Below are positions 6,344 to 22,256 of a stretch of DNA of 22,256 nt, in pieces. The DNA comes from a virus: positions 1 to 22,256 of the IMG/VR virus record IMGVR_UViG_3300027851_001173; one strand, 5' to 3'. Within the stretch, counting starts at the first letter, position 1, and every line of letters starts with the position of its first letter. The notes beneath the pieces are model-generated. The model worked only from the letters and a program-made list of their open reading frames with translations. It searched no databases and was not told the DNA's origin. Made by a program: the position numbers and the translations under genes.

Positions 6344-6716
6344 GATCCTTACCTCCGGAGGTGGTTGCCTGCTTGTGCGGGCAGGTTTTGCAGGCGCGTG
6401 CCAGGGAGACACGCATGGGATTGGTGTGAATGACGGGGCGCCCTTGTTGATCCAGGCAGACCTTCGTGTTGATGTCGCCCAGGACGGGACACAGGACCGT
6501 GTCGCCACCCCAGACGCCGCGCACGCGGGCAGCGAAGCGCTCGACGTTGCCTCTGAACTTGTCGTGGACCGCCTGGCTGATGGCGCTCGGGCTGACGCCC
6601 AGCTCAGCAGCCAGGTCGGTGCCCGACGCGTGCTTGAACTTGTCTCGCACCAGGGCCAGCACATCGGTGGGCAACGGCTTGATGGGCGGGGCTGACTTTT
6701 TTGCAGGGTTTGTCAT
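6336..6716 (-). CDS. helix-turn-helix protein with C-terminal Cys cluster
   Basis: A 126-residue protein. TDLAAELGVSPSAISQAV (residues 33-50) is a clear LacI/Cro-type helix-turn-helix. After a basic helix (FRGNVERFAARVRGVWGG) come CPVLGDINTKVC (76-87) and CKTC (109-112), four cysteines that could bind one zinc or an iron-sulphur cluster. Proteins of this design are common in early regions of Mu-like prophages and are usually annotated as regulators. It begins 9 bases after the upstream stop, with AAGGG as ribosome binding site. Confidence 0.7.
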   Translation of the reverse strand: MTNPAKKSAPPIKPLPTDVLALVRDKFKHASGTDLAAELGVSPSAISQAVHDKFRGNVERFAARVRGVWGGDTVLCPVLGDINTKVCLDQQGRPVIHTNPMRVSLARACKTCPHKQATTSGGKDHE

Positions 6717-8495: not shown

Positions 8496-10682
8496 TCAGT
8501 CGCCCCCGCCTTGCGCGGCAATGGGGTCGGTGCCTTGATGCAGGCGGTCCATCGCTCGCCACTCAGCACTGGTGCTGAAGCTGGCAAACCATGTCTTTTC
8601 AGCAGGCGTTAAGGCCTGCCCTTGTTGGGTACGCGCTTGCATGCGCAGCCACGCCGAATAGCGGGCGTTGGGTGTGTTGGAGACGCGGAACACCTGGGCG
8701 GCTGGCGCGTCGGTGCTCTCCAGGCGAGCCATGGCGGCGCGCACGGCCTCCACCTGGTGGGACGGCACCTGAGGCGCCTTGCGCTGGGCCCGGCCTTCCA
8801 GGCCGTTGATCGCCGATTCAATGGCCGGTGTGGTGCCCAGGCTCTCGCGCACCGGCAGGCGCTGGACCTTGCCGTCTGATCGCTCGATTGCGGCATGCTC
8901 ACGGTCGAGGTAGACATCGCGCACGGCCTTGTCCGTGTCATAGGCCTTCTGCGCGTGCTTGATCGCGCTCTTGAACTCGGCCAGGACCTTGCGTTGGTGA
9001 CCCTTGCGCTTGGCTGCAACCTCTTGAGCGCTGACGCCCAGCCGACTGATGTCGGTGGCCACGCACATGAACGAGCCGTCGAGGTTGAACACATAGACCT
9101 CGCCGATCTCATCCTCGGCGATCCGGCAACGCACCTCCAGGCCCTCACGCCCGCCCAGCTCGGGGGCGGTGTACCAGCCGTTGTCGATCCGGATGCCCTT
9201 CTTGGTGATCGTGCTGGTCTTGTTGACCGACACGGGCGAGAGGAACAGGTCCAGGGCGCGCGTATCAACACGCACGATCTCGCGAAGGTGGGCCTGCGTG
9301 TGGGCGTTGGGGCTGACGCCCAGCGTGCCGTGCTTGGCATCCAGGTAGTCCGACACCCAGTTGTCAATCATGGTCTGCAGGTGATCCGGTGTCAGGCGCA
9401 GCTCGACTTGCTGGCCGATCGCCTTTTTGCCGCACAAGCGCTGGGCAAAGCTCTTGGCACTTTCGATGGCCTTGCGGTCCACCACGCTGTGTCCGACGAA
9501 TCCCGTCAGCAGGGGGAACAGGCTGTGCAGGAGTGAGCCGAAGACGCGCTCAACAAAAGGCTTTTGCTGGGGCTGGAATGGCTCACACAGCGGGTGGCTG
9601 ATGCCCAGTTGCACCAGGGCGAATTCGAGCAGGTCAGCCACGTAGTCCGACCCGTTGTCGGTCTTGATGGACTCGGGCTTGCCCCAGGCGTCCATCGCGC
9701 GGCGGATCAGCGCGGCAATGGCGTTGGCCTTGGATGTGCGCGTGACCAGGAACATGACCCGGCGTGTGAACACGTCGATCACGGCAATGATGTGGTGACG
9801 CCTGACCTCGCCGGTCTCGGGGTCGAACAGCATGCAGTCGCCGACCGTGCTGTCCATCTGCCATTCCTGGTTCGGGCGGGTGATGTGCGCGGCGGCATCG
9901 CCGCTGGCTGACAGATAGCTGGAGCGCCAGGCGTCCGGGTTTGTGTGCGCCAGCCAGGCCTGCGCGTTGTCGGTTTTGAACGCAGTGAATGCGCGCTGGA
10001 AGGCCCGTTCCGAGGGGATCAACTCGAAGGGCACCGTGCCTTCTTTGATGAGCAGGTTGCGCACTGCTGTGGCGGACAGGTGCGGTTTGCTGGACAGCAC
10101 GGCCAGGGCTGCGGTACCGACCTCGCCTGATAGGGCCGCGAACTTGCCGCGACTGGGGTGCGCTGGGCGCACGAGACTGCCGCGCGCCTGCATGTCAAGC
10201 CACCAGCGGCGCAGGGTTGGCGCGGCCAGCTTGGGGATGGCATCACGCAGGGCCTGCGGCACATCGGGGATCAGGCCTGATGACCACAGGAATGCGAACT
10301 GTTCCAGCGCGGGGTGCAGCTTGCCGCCAATGGCCTGCCACCAGCGCTGGAAGATGACCAGCACGCGGGTGCGTTGTGCGTCGGCCTCTTTCATGGGACG
10401 CGCGGGGGCGTCAACGATGAAGGCGGTGCGCTTTGCCAGGGCTGCGGCTGCGTCGGACATCGGCGCCGTGTCTGTGGACACGGCGAAGCGCGCGGCCAGC
10501 GCCAGGCGGGCCTCGGCGGGCAATGTGCTGGGGTCATAGCGCACGAGCAGGCCGCCCCGCACGGGCTCAGTGGAGCACGTCCACCCTTCGATCAGCGCGC
10601 GCTTGCGGATGCCCCGGTCTGTGCCGGGCAAGCCGGGCAGGCCTGCCAGGTCGCGGGCTGTGGGCCAGGTGTGATTCGTCAT
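8496..10682 (-). CDS. A: DDE transposase A (MuA family)
   Basis: A 728-residue transposase that binds phage ends and catalyses strand transfer, both for integration and for replicative transposition. The N-terminal 65 residues (TWPTARDLAGLPGLPGTDRG onward) match the Mu-type winged DNA-binding domain. The catalytic core has WQMDST (Asp277), KTDNGSDY (Asp342) and KPFVERVFG (Glu378), the DDE triad. The C-terminal beta-barrel-like part (near 480-560, TKKGIRIDNGWYTAPELGG) matches the MuA C-terminal domain. The tail is basic and Ala/Gln-rich, fitting interaction with B. The frame is open upstream to 10826, but the ATG at 10682 overlaps the stop of the preceding gene and starts the family N-terminus. 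Confidence 0.95.
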   Translation of the reverse strand: MTNHTWPTARDLAGLPGLPGTDRGIRKRALIEGWTCSTEPVRGGLLVRYDPSTLPAEARLALAARFAVSTDTAPMSDAAAALAKRTAFIVDAPARPMKEADAQRTRVLVIFQRWWQAIGGKLHPALEQFAFLWSSGLIPDVPQALRDAIPKLAAPTLRRWWLDMQARGSLVRPAHPSRGKFAALSGEVGTAALAVLSSKPHLSATAVRNLLIKEGTVPFELIPSERAFQRAFTAFKTDNAQAWLAHTNPDAWRSSYLSASGDAAAHITRPNQEWQMDSTVGDCMLFDPETGEVRRHHIIAVIDVFTRRVMFLVTRTSKANAIAALIRRAMDAWGKPESIKTDNGSDYVADLLEFALVQLGISHPLCEPFQPQQKPFVERVFGSLLHSLFPLLTGFVGHSVVDRKAIESAKSFAQRLCGKKAIGQQVELRLTPDHLQTMIDNWVSDYLDAKHGTLGVSPNAHTQAHLREIVRVDTRALDLFLSPVSVNKTSTITKKGIRIDNGWYTAPELGGREGLEVRCRIAEDEIGEVYVFNLDGSFMCVATDISRLGVSAQEVAAKRKGHQRKVLAEFKSAIKHAQKAYDTDKAVRDVYLDREHAAIERSDGKVQRLPVRESLGTTPAIESAINGLEGRAQRKAPQVPSHQVEAVRAAMARLESTDAPAAQVFRVSNTPNARYSAWLRMQARTQQGQALTPAEKTWFASFSTSAEWRAMDRLHQGTDPIAAQGGGD

Positions 10683-10900
10683 CAGCCGCGCGCCCCAGCT
10701 GCTGTGCCGGACTTCAGACCGAGCAGGACGGCAGCGCGGTGGCATTCGCCGCGCTTGGCTGTGACCTTGGTCTGGCTCAAGACGCGGTAAGCGGCGCTTG
10801 GGTTCACGTTGTGGGCCTTGCACCACTCTGCGATCGACTCGCCGCGATCCTCAAAGGCCTTTTTCACCTGTTCGGGGGTCTTGATAGATTTGGTTTTCAT
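10682..10900 (-). CDS. ner: Ner-like small helix-turn-helix regulator
   Basis: A 72-residue DNA-binding protein, first gene of the leftward operon. SIAEWCKAHNVNPSAAYRVLS (about residues 22-42) is the helix-turn-helix, followed by KRGECHRAAVLLGLKSG, a pattern common in small regulators beside transposase A in Mu-like phages. In Mu, Ner represses both the early and the repressor promoter during lytic growth. Sequence resemblance is to this small-regulator family rather than to Mu Ner itself; the functional call rests on position and size. The stop overlaps the ATG of A (TGATG). Confidence 0.8.
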   Translation of the reverse strand: MKTKSIKTPEQVKKAFEDRGESIAEWCKAHNVNPSAAYRVLSQTKVTAKRGECHRAAVLLGLKSGTAAGARG

Positions 10901-10981: not shown

Positions 10982-11599
10982 ATGGAAAACCCGAAAACAA
11001 CAGCCATCTTTGAGCGATTGAAGAAGGCGCTCAAAGTCGAAACGGACGGCGACCTGGCAGCGCGCCTCGGGCTTTCCTACCAGGCATTCAATAAGCGCAA
11101 GGTGCGCGGGTCCCTTCCTCGCGAGGAGGTCGAAACGCTCATTGACGAGCTGGGGCTGAACCCTGCGTGGGTGTATTCGGGCGAGGACCCGATGTATGAA
11201 GGGGGCGAGGCGCAGCAAAAACGAGAGCAGGACTACCGCGACCTGGTTGCGCAGATGACCGCCATGAGCTTGCACAATGAGACCAGGCGCGCGGTGGAGC
11301 CGCTGATCAAGGGCCTGGTTTGGGGTGACTCATCCAGCGTCGAGCGGTGGCTGGAAGATGTCGGTGGACTGAGCTCCGAGGAGCGCGTGATCGTGGCTGC
11401 GTATCGGGCCGGTGACGCCGATGTTCAGAACGCCATGACTCTCATTGCACAACGCGGGCCGGTGCCAAAGCAGAGTGGTGCAAAGATGAAATTCCACGCG
11501 CCTGTCACGCAAGCTGTAGGTGGTGACCTGATAACCCAGAGCAACACCTTAAATAACGCTGAAAGCGTGCCAACTCAGCGACGAAACCCCCGCAAATGA
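10982..11599 (+). CDS. c: phage repressor (CI-like N-terminal HTH)
   Basis: A 205-residue protein with an N-terminal helix-turn-helix (TDGDLAARLGLSYQAFNKRKVRG, residues 21-43) and the following ELGLNPAWVYSGEDPMY typical of the phage CI repressor domain. The middle (80-160) is helical. The tail contains FHAPVTQAVGGDLI (171-184), which resembles the N-terminus of the next gene product, and ends in basic residues (RRNPRK). There is no LexA-type Ser-Lys protease domain, so control is not by RecA-type self-cleavage. It starts 81 bases from the divergent ner gene, with both operators in between, and should maintain lysogeny by silencing ner-A-B. Unlike in Mu, it reads in the same direction as the late genes. 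Confidence 0.85.
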   Translation: MENPKTTAIFERLKKALKVETDGDLAARLGLSYQAFNKRKVRGSLPREEVETLIDELGLNPAWVYSGEDPMYEGGEAQQKREQDYRDLVAQMTAMSLHNETRRAVEPLIKGLVWGDSSSVERWLEDVGGLSSEERVIVAAYRAGDADVQNAMTLIAQRGPVPKQSGAKMKFHAPVTQAVGGDLITQSNTLNNAESVPTQRRNPRK

Positions 11600-11688: not shown

Positions 11689-12330
11689 GTGCGATCGTCA
11701 TTCCATGGCCCAGTGCAGCAGGTCGCAGGGCAGTCAATTCACAACAATCACTATCACCAGACCGAGCCGGGTCCAGATGATCATGACCACATGGCGCGCA
11801 AGTGTCCTCAATGCGGACGGCGGACCTGGATGCTGAACCGTCACTGCTATCACTGTCGTATGGATCTCCGTGCATATGACCGGCGTCTGCGCTTGATTGC
11901 GATCAGCAAGCGGGCGGGGATCTGGTTAGTTGGTGCGGCCATCGTCCTGACAATTGCTGCGCAGCCGTTGCAGGCTGCAGAAGCAAATTCGGCCAAAGTC
12001 AGTAAGGCAGCTGCGCTGCAGCTAGCGCGCGACATCGACGGTGCGCAACTGGGGTTGTTCTTGATGCTGACCAAGCCACCGGCTGGGGCAACAGCATCAC
12101 TGTCAAGGCGCGCCAATGCGTTGTTCGGATCGCCCGTCTTGAACCAGCCGTTTGCTGCGTGCGTCCAAGCAGCCAACTTTGCTGACGATGTGAAAAGTGA
12201 TGCACGTGCGATGCTGGCCTCTGGCAAGGCACCGGACGCTGCCCGCATTTCATCTCTTGCACGCGCCTCATATTTGCAAGGCGATGCATACAGGCGTTGC
12301 CGAGTTGAGATCGACGCGATGAAGGACTGA
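11689..12330 (+). CDS. membrane protein with zinc ribbon and repressor-like motif
   Basis: A 213-residue protein starting at GTG with a strong ribosome binding site (AGGGAGG, 5-6 bases away). The N-terminus carries FHGPVQQVAGQSI (residues 5-17), matching a motif in the repressor tail. A His/Asp-rich linker follows, then a zinc ribbon (Cys39, Cys42, Cys53, Cys56), and a membrane segment at about 76-95 (AGIWLVGAAIVLTIAA). The last 115 residues, after ...LQAAEA, are likely on the far side of the membrane and contain two Cys that might pair. Because it follows the repressor, it may be expressed in the lysogen. The function is unknown; sensing or superinfection exclusion is a guess. Confidence 0.65.
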   Translation: MRSSFHGPVQQVAGQSIHNNHYHQTEPGPDDHDHMARKCPQCGRRTWMLNRHCYHCRMDLRAYDRRLRLIAISKRAGIWLVGAAIVLTIAAQPLQAAEANSAKVSKAAALQLARDIDGAQLGLFLMLTKPPAGATASLSRRANALFGSPVLNQPFAACVQAANFADDVKSDARAMLASGKAPDAARISSLARASYLQGDAYRRCRVEIDAMKD

Positions 12331-12362: not shown

Positions 12363-13112
12363 TTGGAAAATGACAAGTTTGATTTCGATCCATTCAAGCC
12401 CTATACCGTTGATCAAATAAAGGGCGTGCATGTCACTCCAGAAAAAGGAGGAAATGAACTGCCTACACTTGGGTACCTACAAGCAGGCCTGAGTGATCTT
12501 TATCAAAAGACAAAAATATATGAGTACTACTTGCAACAGTACGAAGCCGCCAGTGGCAAAGGCACCCTGCAAGGGTTCGGCCTTGACTTCTTAGGTTTAC
12601 CAAACAACGGGGCACGTTTGGTCCCATGCTATTTTCACTGGTTTGGGACGTCCATAATCAACTACGCTCGGGTTGCGGGGTTCCTTGGTGGCATCGCCAC
12701 GAATTCGTTCTCCAGAGATGACCTAGAGACAAGCGCTGGAGGAAAGAAGATAAAGGATTATTGCGATAACTACTTGGAGGGCATACAAGAGCTAGATGGC
12801 GTGAGAGTTTGGAGAAATAAGATTGCAGCCCACTTCGCCATTACGGCCCCAAAGACGACTGGAACGGAAAGGGACAACCTTGCGTTGCTAAACCTAACCA
12901 CGATGTTCCCGATTGGCTTTTCAGGCAGTCGTTTTTTTGTTGGACAGACAGGACTCTCACACCACGACAGCGCTGGCGTAAAGCACTATGCACAACTGCC
13001 CCGATGGTCTCTCACCCAAGTTTATGAGTCATTGGTGCCTCGGTTTTTTTCTGACCCGCAGCAACTCCCAACCTATGTAAAGGTGCCACCAAGTCAGGTC
13101 TTAAGTAGTTGA
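12363..13112 (+). CDS. cargo gene with HEPN-like RNKxxAH motif
   Basis: A 249-residue protein in a stretch visibly richer in A and T than its neighbours, suggesting recent acquisition. It starts at TTG, supported by GGAGAG 6 bases upstream; no ATG competes near the N-terminus. The motif VWRNKIAAHF (residues 149-158) has Arg and His separated by five residues, inside a helical region, as in the R-x4-6-H motif of HEPN ribonucleases and related helical bundles. Also visible are FHWFGTSIINYARVAGF (91-107) and a conserved-looking end, LPRWSLTQVYESLVPRFF. A defence or toxin-like role is possible, but many proteins with such a motif have unknown function. Confidence 0.6.
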   Translation: MENDKFDFDPFKPYTVDQIKGVHVTPEKGGNELPTLGYLQAGLSDLYQKTKIYEYYLQQYEAASGKGTLQGFGLDFLGLPNNGARLVPCYFHWFGTSIINYARVAGFLGGIATNSFSRDDLETSAGGKKIKDYCDNYLEGIQELDGVRVWRNKIAAHFAITAPKTTGTERDNLALLNLTTMFPIGFSGSRFFVGQTGLSHHDSAGVKHYAQLPRWSLTQVYESLVPRFFSDPQQLPTYVKVPPSQVLSS

Positions 13113-13152: not shown

Positions 13153-13204
13153 GCTGAAGGGCTTCAGCCTGTGCCCATGAGGGCACGCTGCCGACACTGG
13201 CAGC
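13153..13204 (+). promoter_or_regulatory. three consecutive hairpins before the endolysin start
   Basis: Three perfect inverted repeats follow each other: GCTGAAG-GG-CTTCAGC (13153-13168), GTGCCC-ATGA-GGGCAC (13171-13186) and GCTGCC-GACACT-GGCAGC (13187-13204). The last ends at the base before the endolysin ATG. There is no T run, so these are not simple terminators, and no Shine-Dalgarno sequence is visible. The first has only a 2-base centre and would open slightly as RNA. A translational control leader is the likely reading. Confidence 0.5.
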
Positions 13205-13744
13205 ATGCTCTACAACAACCGCGCCGATGTTCAGCTCAGCCCCAACTTCTGGCTGAGCGAGTTCGAACACTCCGAAACCGCAACCCGCAATGGGCTGCGC
13301 AATGAGGCTGGCCCGGTTGAGATTGCCAACCTGAAGCGTCTGGCATATCAAGCACAGGACGTGCGCGCCCTGCTGGGCAACGTGCCCATCACGCTCAGCT
13401 CTGGGCTGCGCACCTTGATCGTCAACGGCCTGGTCACAAAGATCATCACGCCGGATCAGGTGCCCAAGTTGGGCAGTCGGCCCGACCTGATGACAGCCCT
13501 GCGCAACAGCACGTCTGCGCACAAGGATGGCAGGGCGATGGACTTCACGGCTGCGACATTTGGTAGCCCGCGAGAGATCGTTGCTCGGCTGCGTGACTCT
13601 GCCCTGCCCTTTGATCAGTTGATCTTTGAGGGCACGTGGGTGCACTACGGTATCGCCAAGGAAGGTGTTGAACCACGCCGCCAGGTCCTGACTGCTGTAT
13701 TCAAGGCAGGCCAGAAGACCCGCTATCTGCCGGGGCTCGTATGA
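13205..13744 (+). CDS. endolysin, M15-type peptidase
   Basis: A 179-residue protein of the M15 D-Ala-D-Ala carboxypeptidase-like family used by many phages to cut peptidoglycan peptides. It opens with LSPNFWLSEFEHSETA, the usual start of this family. SSGLRT (65-70), SAHKDGRAMDF with His106 and Asp113, and FEGTWVHYG with Glu142 and His147 give the zinc ligands and catalytic residues. There is no signal peptide, so release needs the holin encoded next. A stop codon lies in frame 9 codons upstream with no start between, so ATG 13205 is forced although no ribosome binding site is present. It overlaps the holin gene by ATGA. Confidence 0.85.
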   Translation: MLYNNRADVQLSPNFWLSEFEHSETATRNGLRNEAGPVEIANLKRLAYQAQDVRALLGNVPITLSSGLRTLIVNGLVTKIITPDQVPKLGSRPDLMTALRNSTSAHKDGRAMDFTAATFGSPREIVARLRDSALPFDQLIFEGTWVHYGIAKEGVEPRRQVLTAVFKAGQKTRYLPGLV

Positions 13745-20212: not shown

Positions 20213-21375
20213 TGGACGGCACCGACGTCAAGTTCGCCATCGGCCTGGAGCCCACAGAAGCGGTGCGCTATCTGCAGGGCAAGGGCGTGGCTGTGACGGG
20301 CAACTGGACACAGTGGCTGGAAGGTCAGCATGCACGGGCGTTCACGGTTGCCAATGTGGCCAAGCTTGACGTGGTCAGCGACATCCACACCAGCCTGGTC
20401 GAAGCCCTGAAGCAGGGTCAGACGCTGGATCAGTGGCGCGATGGCCTGATCCCCACGCTGAAGGCCAAGGGCTGGTGGCGCCGCGAAGGCACGGCCAAGC
20501 AGCTGACCGATGCGGGCCGCGTGAACCAGGCCACGGGCGAGATTGCAAAGGGCCTGACAGCGCCGCGCCTGAAAGTCATCTACGAGACCAACATGCAGAG
20601 CGCTTACAGCGCGGCACGTTATGAGCAGATGGTGGCCGGTGCGGCGCGCCGTCCACTGTGGCAGTGGATATCGCTGCAGTACGGTCTCAACAGGCGCCCT
20701 GCCCACGTGGCCATGCACAACCGGGTGTTCAGGTACGACGATGGCCTGTTCAAGACGGTGTGGGCACCGTGCGGCTATGGCTGCAAGTGCCGCATGCGGG
20801 CGTACACCGAGCGAGAGGCTCAGCAGCGCGGCCTGCACGTCGAGAGCACCGCAGGAAAGCTCAGCCAGGTCACCGTGCCGCTGCGCGATGGCAGCATGGC
20901 CCGCGTGACCAGGTACACGGACCCCAGCTTTGGCGCCCAGCGGTTCTTCCAGCCCGACCCGGGCTTCGGCCATAACCCTGCAGCGTCGGTGTGGATGCCC
21001 AGGCTCGGTGATCGGCCTGCAGCGCTGTCTAGCGCGTTTGTGCGCCAGGCAGTGGCCGGGCCTGCGTTTGAGCGCTTCGTTGGCGCAAAGGGCAAGCTGC
21101 AGGGGTCGTTCCCTGTTGGCTTACTTGATGACGCAAAGCCAGGCGCAGACCCTGGTGTGTACCTGGACAGCGAGGAGCTGAGCGCTGGCGTCGCTTCTAC
21201 CATGGCGCTTGATCGACTGCGTTTGCTACCTGACCTGGTCGCGGTGGGTAAGCGCCTGGACGATGGGTCCATTGCCCTGAACGAGCACGACGGCCAGCTG
21301 CTGGCCAGGCTGACCGATCGGGAGGGGTACACGATCGTTTCCGGTCTGTCGTGGAACCCGAGGGCTGCTCGATGA
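20212..21375 (+). CDS. F: MuF head morphogenesis protein with C-terminal extension
   Basis: A 387-residue minor head protein of the Mu gpF (gp30) family. The core includes YETNMQSAYSAARYEQM (residues 124-140), then RPAHVAMHNRVFRYDD (His165, His169) and PCGYGCKCRMRAYT (Cys187, 191, 193). After a linker (about 235-285) a separate C-terminal region (about 289-383) begins with FVGAKGKLQGSFPVGLLDD and ends YTIVSGLSWNP. It resembles the small nuclease-like (barnase/EndoU/RelE-type) domains often fused to MuF proteins. ATG 20212 overlaps the portal stop; a GTG one codon earlier is an alternative. Confidence 0.85.
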   Translation: MDGTDVKFAIGLEPTEAVRYLQGKGVAVTGNWTQWLEGQHARAFTVANVAKLDVVSDIHTSLVEALKQGQTLDQWRDGLIPTLKAKGWWRREGTAKQLTDAGRVNQATGEIAKGLTAPRLKVIYETNMQSAYSAARYEQMVAGAARRPLWQWISLQYGLNRRPAHVAMHNRVFRYDDGLFKTVWAPCGYGCKCRMRAYTEREAQQRGLHVESTAGKLSQVTVPLRDGSMARVTRYTDPSFGAQRFFQPDPGFGHNPAASVWMPRLGDRPAALSSAFVRQAVAGPAFERFVGAKGKLQGSFPVGLLDDAKPGADPGVYLDSEELSAGVASTMALDRLRLLPDLVAVGKRLDDGSIALNEHDGQLLARLTDREGYTIVSGLSWNPRAAR

Positions 21376-21860
21376 TCGAGATTGATATCCCGTATCAGCC
21401 GATCATCCGCGCGCTGCGTGAGCTGATGGGCAACCTGAGCGACCGCAGGGAGTTGATGCGTGACCTGTCGGGGATCATGCACCGGGCCGTTGAGGACAAC
21501 TTCGCGAACGAAGGCCGACCGAAGTGGGTGGCGCTGAGCCCCATGACCATCTCGATGCGCCGCAAGTCGGGCACCTGGCCTGGTCAGATTCTGCAAGCGT
21601 CTGGTCAGTTGGCCGCCAGCGTTCAGCCGTACTCAGATAACGACCAGGCATTGGTGGGCACCAATAAGGCCTATGCCGCGATTCAGCAATATGGCGGGGT
21701 CATCAAACCCAAGACCAAGCGAGCCTTGCGGTTCGGCGGCGTGGTTGTGCGCCAGGTCACTATCCCAGCTCGTCCATTCCTGCATCTGACAGCAGAGGAT
21801 TCACAAGACCTGCTGGACGAAGCCCAACACTTCTTGCAAGCGCAGATTCAAAAGCTGTGA
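21372..21860 (+). CDS. G: virion morphogenesis protein (Mu gpG family)
   Basis: A 162-residue protein of the Mu gpG / tail completion family. Typical blocks are NFANEGRPKWVALSPMT (residues 44-60), GQILQASGQLAASVQ (about 72-86), VGTNKAYAAIQQYGG (about 93-107) and VTIPARPFLHLTAED near the end. Proteins of this family act at the head-tail joining stage. The ATG overlaps the MuF stop (ATGA). It ends 15 bases from the convergent gene on the other strand, with no clear terminator between. Confidence 0.85.
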   Translation: MIEIDIPYQPIIRALRELMGNLSDRRELMRDLSGIMHRAVEDNFANEGRPKWVALSPMTISMRRKSGTWPGQILQASGQLAASVQPYSDNDQALVGTNKAYAAIQQYGGVIKPKTKRALRFGGVVVRQVTIPARPFLHLTAEDSQDLLDEAQHFLQAQIQKL

Positions 21861-21875
21861 CCTAGCGCGTTGCTC

Positions 21876-22256
21876 TCAAATCTCTTTGGGTGCGAATCCG
21901 GTCGCTGCAGCCTGCAGGCAGAAGTGCATGACAAGGGTCACCACAGCTTTCCGGCTCGAAAGCGAGACAACTTTCGGACCGATTTTCAAACTGGTGTCGC
22001 CTTGCTGGCTAAAGCTGAACTCGCCTAGTGGCAGCGCATCTTCAAAGCAGTCATGCCTTGGCAGCATATGGACCGCAACAAGGCCCAGATATTGACCATC
22101 ATTCGCAGTGGTGGTGAACGAGAAGCGGATGTCCTTGCCGACGTAACGAACGACGAAATGGTCTTTCGCTGAATCTGCAGAGGTGACGGCGGCACCCAAC
22201 TGACCGTACTCGCGGTCCGCAAAATTTTGTTTTGCACTAGCTGAAAAGCTAGAAAA
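21876..22256 (-). CDS. reverse-strand cargo gene, 5' end outside window
   Basis: On the minus strand the frame is open from the window edge to the stop at 21876, giving 126 visible C-terminal residues; a TTG at 22199 exists but need not be the start. Readable features are HFVVRYVGKDIRFSFTTT, LPLGEFSFSQQGDTSLKIG and ALVMHF-like strands, suggesting a beta-rich soluble fold. Orientation opposite to all flanking late genes and a base composition less GC-rich than theirs mark it as a cargo gene (moron). No family is recognised. Its promoter must be to the right of the window. Confidence 0.55.
   Translation of the reverse strand, partial: FSSFSASAKQNFADREYGQLGAAVTSADSAKDHFVVRYVGKDIRFSFTTTANDGQYLGLVAVHMLPRHDCFEDALPLGEFSFSQQGDTSLKIGPKVVSLSSRKAVVTLVMHFCLQAAATGFAPKEI

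What the first reader, a model, noticed from the sequence alone, without database searches (positions are those of the whole stretch)
21876..22256. Reverse-strand gene breaks the late operon after G
In Mu-like phages G is followed directly by the protease/scaffold genes. Here a convergent minus-strand gene of different composition follows, with no terminator in the 15-base gap. This is classic cargo placement; the product is unrecognised and beta-rich. The gene could be expressed from the prophage while late genes are silent.
Basis: partly seen in the sequence, partly recalled or inferred. Interest (0 to 1): 0.5.

Follow-up and report, generated by a model that had tools for sequence, protein, structure and literature searches.

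The report
Reverse-strand accessory gene in phage
A small gene of unknown job, read backwards, sits between two head genes of a Mu-like phage, in the slot where relatives carry anti-CRISPR and other accessory genes; the slot is known, the gene appears to be new, and its function is unproven.

Summary
The window is a whole 22,256-bp viral record, so the minus-strand frame at 21876-22256 is cut by its end. Two other phages carry 156-157-aa genes on the same strand just upstream of I. These two are homologous to each other (51% identity, pN/pS 0.42), but kinship of the window gene to them is only suggestive.

The gene does not break one operon. I has its own late-promoter-like element (CTGAAGNNCTTCAG, 25-26 bp, -10-like hexamer), and the same element precedes the endolysin gene at 13205. 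This matches Mu's C-activated PI and Plys. The gene lies at a transcription-unit boundary.

The slot is an accessory site: D3112 and JBD30 hold AcrF2 and AcrF1 there, and 29 of 115 surveyed loci have 400 bp or more between G and I. Best reading: a new accessory gene in a known slot, probably for prophage-expressed exclusion/defence or anti-defence. The function is inferred, not shown.

The parts
21876..22256 (-). accessory (cargo) gene, 3' 126 codons; the 5' part (28 more codons) is seen only in near-identical contig L002:6710-7174
   Evidence: GC 0.529 against 0.609 for the window
21861..21875 (.). 15-bp convergent gap between G and the cargo gene, no terminator-like site
21372..21860 (+). 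G homologue (Phage_tail_S; phrog_26 tail completion/Neck1), left border of the slot
   Evidence: start codon chosen by comparison with L002
20209..21375 (+). F homologue (Phage_Mu_F; phrog_220)
13154..13167 (.). perfect palindrome CTGAAGGGCTTCAG, proposed activator (C/Mor-type) site of the first late promoter (Plys analogue); the same element lies upstream of I in L002
   Evidence: about 0.0013 exact matches expected in 22 kb at equal base frequencies
13193..13198 (+). -10-like hexamer GACACT, 25 bp after the palindrome and 6 bp before the endolysin ATG
13205..13744 (+). first late gene, endolysin (phrog_894, Peptidase_M15_3)

Best explanation
The reverse-strand frame is a real accessory gene (a moron) in the G-I accessory slot of Mu-like phages, the slot that holds the anti-CRISPR genes in D3112 and JBD30. 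Shown: it is a complete 154-codon gene in L002 with a plausible ribosome site; it lies between G and I; the slot's content varies among relatives; a phage-specific palindrome plus -10-like element lies between the gene and I and also before the endolysin gene. Inferred: this element is the C-activated late promoter PI, so I is transcribed on its own and a foreign gene can sit here on either strand without cutting the head genes off from a promoter. The gene reads away from PI and would be transcribed from its own promoter in the 94-bp divergent region (not detected by the scan), in the lysogen or early after entry. When C binds the palindrome, PI fires, and transcription arriving from Plys and F-G runs antisense through the gene, turning it down. 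The product, a small protein with no recognised domain, most likely acts against other phages (superinfection exclusion or defence, about 0.4) or against host defences (anti-CRISPR-like, about 0.3). The 0.75 below is for the accessory-gene-at-a-unit-boundary reading, not for either function.
For: Whole gene with start and ribosome site in L002. Slot between phrog_26 G and phrog_976 protease. Related pair on the same strand and in the same place in L004 and L093, pN 0.33 against pS 0.79. Low GC in all three (0.526, 0.507, 0.536) against 0.656-0.665 for the G and I genes measured in L004 and L093. Variable slot: 29 of 115 loci with a gap of 400 bp or more, with D12 methylase, RES and HEPN-RES, SDH protease, HNH and pentapeptide proteins. 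AcrF2 in D3112 and AcrF1 plus a winged-HTH gene in JBD30 in the same slot. Promoter element: 9 of 9 palindrome sites examined have one A2/T6 hexamer in the scanned spacer range 20-31, at 25 bp in 7 and 26 bp in 2. In G006 and G407 one copy precedes the endolysin and one the protease gene. If the hexamer is placed at -12 to -7, the palindrome centre falls at about -44.5; Mor's dyad is centred at -43.5 (PMC4287176 passages). [quoted passage not shown] Cargo ends at least 64 bp before I in 24 of 24 hand-listed loci.
Against: No promoter-like site in L002 6500-7300 and no terminator of its own in the window. The D3112 and JBD30 slot genes are on the late-gene strand; in the hand list 18 of 25 are on that strand and 7 on the other. 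The palindrome was found in 9 of 169 loci, representing 6 records; 160 loci lack it, and 2 of 5 records searched whole had none. 9 of 115 loci have under 100 bp between G and I, too little for this element in its usual place. No functional assay exists. The Mor-family gene was found in 1 of 5 records searched, with a TGA inside the match, and not in the window record. Kinship of the window gene to the L004/L093 pair is unproven.
Confidence: 0.75

Rival explanations
1. The gene is an anti-defence gene (anti-CRISPR-like or other inhibitor) expressed at once after entry, as the genes in this slot of D3112 and JBD30 are known to be.
For: Same slot as AcrF2 and AcrF1; small orphan protein of low GC. 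RGP G of P. aeruginosa Mu-like phages is a low-GC region with anti-CRISPR genes (PMC4378225 section 11).
Against: No aca-type regulator beside it: in L002 it is the only gene in the slot. It is longer than the Acr genes there (154 aa against 90 and 78 codons) and on the other strand. No match to known folds or families.
Confidence: 0.3
2. The gene is a prophage-expressed exclusion or defence gene that protects the lysogen from other phages.
For: Reverse-strand genes in this slot of other phages include HEPN-RES proteins (L037, L154; L167 by similarity of its listed sequence). Placement divergent from PI would let it be read while late genes are silent (inference).
Against: No match to PADLOC-DB for this protein or the L004/L093 pair. 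No promoter-like site found.
Confidence: 0.4
3. Antisense shadow: the frame is open by chance opposite non-coding DNA.
For: The window alone shows no start.
Against: The whole gene has a start and ribosome site in L002. The L004/L093 pair in the same place and strand is under purifying selection (pN/pS 0.42). No long plus-strand frame lies opposite (69 aa at most in the window among frames of 60 aa or more). For the window gene itself the window-L002 comparison is uninformative: 2 synonymous and 3 non-synonymous codons.
Confidence: 0.04
4. The window gene and the L004/L093 pair are unrelated genes that arrived independently in the same slot and orientation.
For: BLASTP L002-L004 Expect 47. An HMM of the pair scores the window copy 5.9 bits, E 12, behind several unrelated frames. 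phmmer L002 to L093 E 28. Global shuffles 18-34 of 1000, L002-L004 local 213 of 1000.
Against: BLASTP L002-L093 E 0.003 over 16 residues, local shuffles 5 of 1000, hhalign E 0.0031 but probability only 10%. Same size, strand, place and predicted element order (the models are not independent because the first used an alignment that holds the pair).
Confidence: 0.4

Closest known systems
Anti-CRISPR locus (region of genomic plasticity G) of P. aeruginosa Mu-like phages D3112 and JBD30
   Same: Lies between the G homologue and the head maturation protease; small accessory genes; low GC reported for RGP G.
   Different: Those genes are on the late-gene strand, and JBD30 has a winged-HTH gene beside acrF1. 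Here a single gene is on the opposite strand with no sequence likeness found. That RGP G is the G-I slot is my reading of the D3112 and JBD30 records; the passages I saw do not name the flanking genes.
Phage Mu late promoters Plys and PI activated by C
   Same: A dyad upstream of -35, one copy before the lysis gene and one before I; a non-consensus -10.
   Different: The palindrome sequence here is CTGAAGNNCTTCAG; binding of a C/Mor protein was not tested. I did not compare it with the Mu site sequences.
Mu-like phages L004 and L093 (IMG/VR) with the related pair
   Same: Minus-strand 156-157-aa gene of low GC just upstream of the I promoter element.
   Different: They also carry a second slot gene on the plus strand (157-aa orphan; D12 methylase) and hairpins between the convergent genes. 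Sequence likeness to the window gene is marginal.
Burkholderia phage Mana gp015 (P2-like)
   Same: A 151-aa BFVD entry matches the low-confidence model (TM 0.51/0.52, E 0.067, rank 7 of 50 listed). By its length I equate it with gp015, which follows a phrog_26 gene, the PHROG of G.
   Different: No sequence likeness (shuffles 150 and 329 of 1000); plus strand; picked after seeing the list. A lead only.

Membership tests
G-I accessory slot (anti-CRISPR locus of D3112/JBD30) | lies between G homologue and protease/scaffold I | tested here: met
   (I seen in L002, not in the window)
G-I accessory slot (anti-CRISPR locus of D3112/JBD30) | content varies between related phages | tested here: met
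   29 of 115 loci with 400 bp or more, diverse proteins; L094, I 59% identical, has a D12 methylase instead
G-I accessory slot (anti-CRISPR locus of D3112/JBD30) | slot genes on the late-gene strand | tested here: not met
   minus strand here; plus in D3112 and JBD30
Anti-CRISPR genes | aca-type HTH gene beside the acr gene | tested here: not met
   single gene in the slot of L002; AcrIF7 subclusters without Aca1 are reported (PMC10155984 passage), so this feature is not decisive
Anti-CRISPR genes | blocks a CRISPR-Cas system | not testable with these tools
   needs an assay
Anti-CRISPR genes | sequence likeness to a solved Acr protein | tested here: inconclusive
   profile A3: 0 PDB sequences at E 10 or better; L002 protein: 3, best E 0.1, none an Acr
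Moron | composition differs from neighbours | tested here: met
Moron | own promoter | tested here: inconclusive
   0 sigma-70-like sites in L002 6500-7300, L004 3200-4600 and L093 600-1450; other promoter types not covered
Moron | own terminator | tested here: not met
   none in window 21700-22256; L004 has a hairpin between the convergent genes and L093 an inverted repeat followed by T's (seen in sequence)
C-activated late promoter (PI) | dyad at about -44 with non-consensus -10 upstream of I and of the lysis gene | tested here: met
   9 of 9 sites examined; endolysin and protease downstream. The start site is inferred, so the -44 depends on taking the hexamer as the -10
C-activated late promoter (PI) | a Mor/C-family activator in the phage | tested here: inconclusive
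   PF08765 over cut-off in L094's record with a TGA inside the match; none in the other 4 records, all possibly fragments

The most novel reading that the evidence does not exclude
A dedicated class of PI-divergent genes: reverse-strand prophage genes placed so that the late activator C, on binding its palindrome, at once fires the head operon and shuts off the gene (its -35 region would overlap the palindrome). This would make a defence or exclusion function that is on in the lysogen and is switched off by the lytic switch, with the same arrangement used by this orphan family and by HEPN-RES genes in other Mu-like phages.
Probability: 0.15. Interest if true: 0.6.

Novelty: new member of a known kind. 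Interest (0 to 1): 0.4.

Why it matters
The gene adds an apparently unrecorded protein to a slot already known in Pseudomonas phages for anti-CRISPR genes, and the survey shows the slot used for varied cargo in Mu-like prophages of many Proteobacteria. The palindrome with a fixed 25-26 bp spacing gives a simple sequence mark for the two late promoters of this phage group and explains why foreign genes on either strand are tolerated there: the head genes downstream keep their own promoter. The slot can be mined for new defence and anti-defence genes.

Tried and rejected
Family searches of the gene: Pfam none, PHROGs best E 0.23-0.27, PADLOC none. tblastn: phages none for the 126-aa part, 3 unrelated at E 6 for the whole; plasmids 3 each at E 0.1 or worse, annotated as hypothetical or none. 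I opened two of these (Pantoea, Streptomyces) and did not pursue them. L093 protein: 4 plasmid records at E 6-7. L004 protein: no phage.

Further homologue searches. Genome contigs: 32 stretches matched a pattern, none a relative. Viral contigs: only L002, L004 and L093. Whole genomes at E 0.01 or better: 2 of 399, 1 of 399, 3 of 369, 1 of 398, 7 weak matches in all. I looked at five (L188-L192) and none is a gene of this family: partial matches, frames opposite other genes, or no open frame. L172 and L173 I did not inspect. These are samples of the taxa, centred on a guessed host order.

Folds: no Foldseek match at E 0.001 or better in PDB for either model or in BFVD for the first. VIA best Z 6.5 (frataxin, a Mediator subunit), below the level the tool calls meaningful. 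p32-like chains recur in both PDB lists without significance. The models are too poor to name a fold.

Recalled and found wrong: I thought the variable locus of P2-like coliphages lay between S and V; the passage seen puts it between gpA and gpQ (PMC9122126).

Survey limits. Of 166 loci scanned, 128 had G and I on one strand; 11 with G downstream of I and two duplicate records (L011, L092) were dropped, leaving 115.

Papers. Passages seen in PMC4287176, PMC4461284, PMC4378225 (plus its section 11 whole), PMC9122126, PMC10155984, PMC8188340, PMC3091744 and PMC9936078. The others were seen in search listings only. I found no paper in those listings that describes the G-I slot as a general accessory site outside Pseudomonas, but I searched only this library with those terms.

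Full report
What is there. The window is the whole of a 22,256-bp IMG/VR record. Its last feature is a minus-strand frame, 21876-22256, open to the record's end. It converges on G, a Phage_tail_S protein of phrog_26, across 15 bp with no terminator-like site. GC is 0.529 against 0.609 for the window and 0.592-0.651 for the neighbours G, portal and F.

The missing end. A scan of viral contigs found one relative, L002 (IMGVR_UViG_3300027851_001189), 98% identical in protein over the 126 residues. There the frame runs on to a GTG at 6710 with AGGAG six bases upstream, 154 codons in all. Gene I, a head maturation protease of phrog_976, starts 94 bp beyond on the other strand. The order is therefore G forward, cargo reverse, I forward. 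Window and L002 differ in the gene by 2 synonymous and 3 non-synonymous codons, too few to show selection.

Relatives of the gene. Using G and an alignment of I as anchors, I found L004 and L093. Each has a minus-strand gene of 157 or 156 aa just upstream of I. The two are 51% identical, with pN 0.33 and pS 0.79, so that pair is a real gene under purifying selection. Both are GC-poor (0.507, 0.536) in GC-rich surroundings. L004 also carries a plus-strand 157-aa orphan and L093 a plus-strand D12-type methylase fragment; L094, the nearest long contig by I (59%), has the methylase (Pfam) and no reverse gene.

Is the window gene of that family? For: BLASTP to L093 E 0.003 over 16 residues around the FSF-QQG-T motif; local shuffles 5 of 1000 and global 18 of 1000; hhalign E 0.0031 with probability 10%; same length, strand, place and predicted order of helix and strands. 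Against: L002-L004 BLASTP Expect 47 and local shuffles 213 of 1000; an HMM of the pair gives the window copy only 5.9 bits, E 12, behind several unrelated frames among 22,081. Of the five control pairs the lowest global count was 52 of 1000. I treat kinship as likely but unproven (about 0.6). The models are poor (mean pLDDT 42.3 and 47.5) and the first was made with the other family's rows in its alignment.

The slot. Of 115 loci with G before I, the gap is under 100 bp in 9, 100-399 in 77 and 400 or more in 29. Cargo in the large gaps includes a D12 methylase, HEPN-RES and RES proteins, an SDH-type protease, HNH proteins, pentapeptide proteins (Pfam for L054; L085 by eye) and several orphans. 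In D3112 the slot between the Mu-G-like orf29 and the protease orf33 holds AcrF2 and two small genes; in JBD30, AcrF1 and a winged-HTH gene. Cazares and colleagues describe RGP G of such phages as a low-GC region with anti-CRISPR genes (PMC4378225, section 11; further passages). In a hand-typed list of 25 cargo loci, 18 have the I-proximal cargo on the late-gene strand and 7 on the other, including three HEPN-RES-like genes (Pfam run for L037 and L154 of the three).

Why a reversed gene can sit there. Upstream of I in L002, L004, L093 and L094 lies CTGAAGNNCTTCAG. The same palindrome occurs exactly once in the window, at 13154-13167, 37 bp before the ATG of the endolysin gene (phrog_894). With up to two mismatches no further site appears, although 1.18 were expected by chance; for an exact match at equal base frequencies about 0.0013 would be expected. 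In the 38-kb record of L094 there are two copies, one before an endolysin and one before I; in a 3.8-Mb genome (L075's) there are two copies, both in one prophage contig, again before an endolysin and before I. A 4.8-Mb genome (L079's) also has two, one before I and one elsewhere whose place I did not examine. The reversed control pattern gave none in these five records. In 9 of 9 sites examined, the only spacer between 20 and 31 bp that gives a hexamer with A at 2 and T at 6 is 25 bp (7 sites) or 26 bp (2 sites). If that hexamer is the -10, the palindrome centre lies at about -44.5. Mor of Mu binds a dyad centred at -43.5, and C binds related dyads at Plys, PI, PP and Pmom (PMC4287176 passages; PMC4461284 abstract and passages). 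I conclude that these are the Plys and PI analogues. The limits: 160 of 169 loci lack this exact palindrome, so other Mu-like groups must use other sites; a Mor-family gene was seen in only one of five records, with a TGA in the match. In 24 of 24 listed loci, cargo stops at least 64 bp before I, as expected if PI must be kept.

How it probably works. Shown: gene, slot, promoter-like elements. Inferred: the gene is read from its own start in the 94-bp divergent region, away from PI, outside late control. Its TAATAT sequence (L002 6679-6684) would put a -35 over the palindrome, so C binding could both fire PI and silence the gene. This is conjecture, and the scan found no sigma-70-like promoter. 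Read-through from F and G would add antisense RNA in the late phase, since no terminator lies between G and the gene in the window. The product's job is most likely exclusion or defence (0.4) or anti-defence (0.3).

Verdict. Real gene, real accessory placement, known slot, apparently new protein, reversed orientation explained by a promoter boundary and not by a broken operon. I score it as a new member of a known kind, with moderate interest.

Noticed in passing
window 12363-13112 (+): A 249-aa gene of very low GC (0.482, GC3 0.506) directly before the Plys-like element; only a sub-threshold Pfam match to HEPN_AbiU2 (E 0.29). A second accessory gene at the other late-promoter boundary.
   Followed up: partly
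window 11689-12330 (+): 213-aa protein with a sub-threshold zinc-ribbon match (E 0.012) between the repressor-like gene and the low-GC gene.
   Followed up: partly
window 8496-10826 (-) and 10982-11599 (+): Mu-type transposase on the minus strand and a CI-type repressor on the plus strand: the early genes run left, the late genes right.
   Followed up: partly
L037:3565-4839 (-), L154:438-1736 (-), L167:3524-4822 (-): HEPN-RES-type proteins, also reverse-strand, in the same G-I slot of other phages (Pfam run for L037 and L154). Candidate toxin or defence genes.
   Followed up: partly
L161:3414-4600 (+): Transposase-like frames (IS3-type by eye) interrupt the 270-aa slot gene seen whole in L121.
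   Followed up: no
L083, L061/L121, L153/L162, L018, L149: Slot genes of 174-298 aa; those run through Pfam (L083, L121, L153, L018, L149) gave no match. L061/L121 and L153/L162 look like recurring orphan families.
   Followed up: partly
nine sites: The -10-like hexamer ends 6-9 bp before an ATG in the eight sites where that is visible in the printout, which would make the late transcripts nearly leaderless if it is the -10.
   Followed up: no
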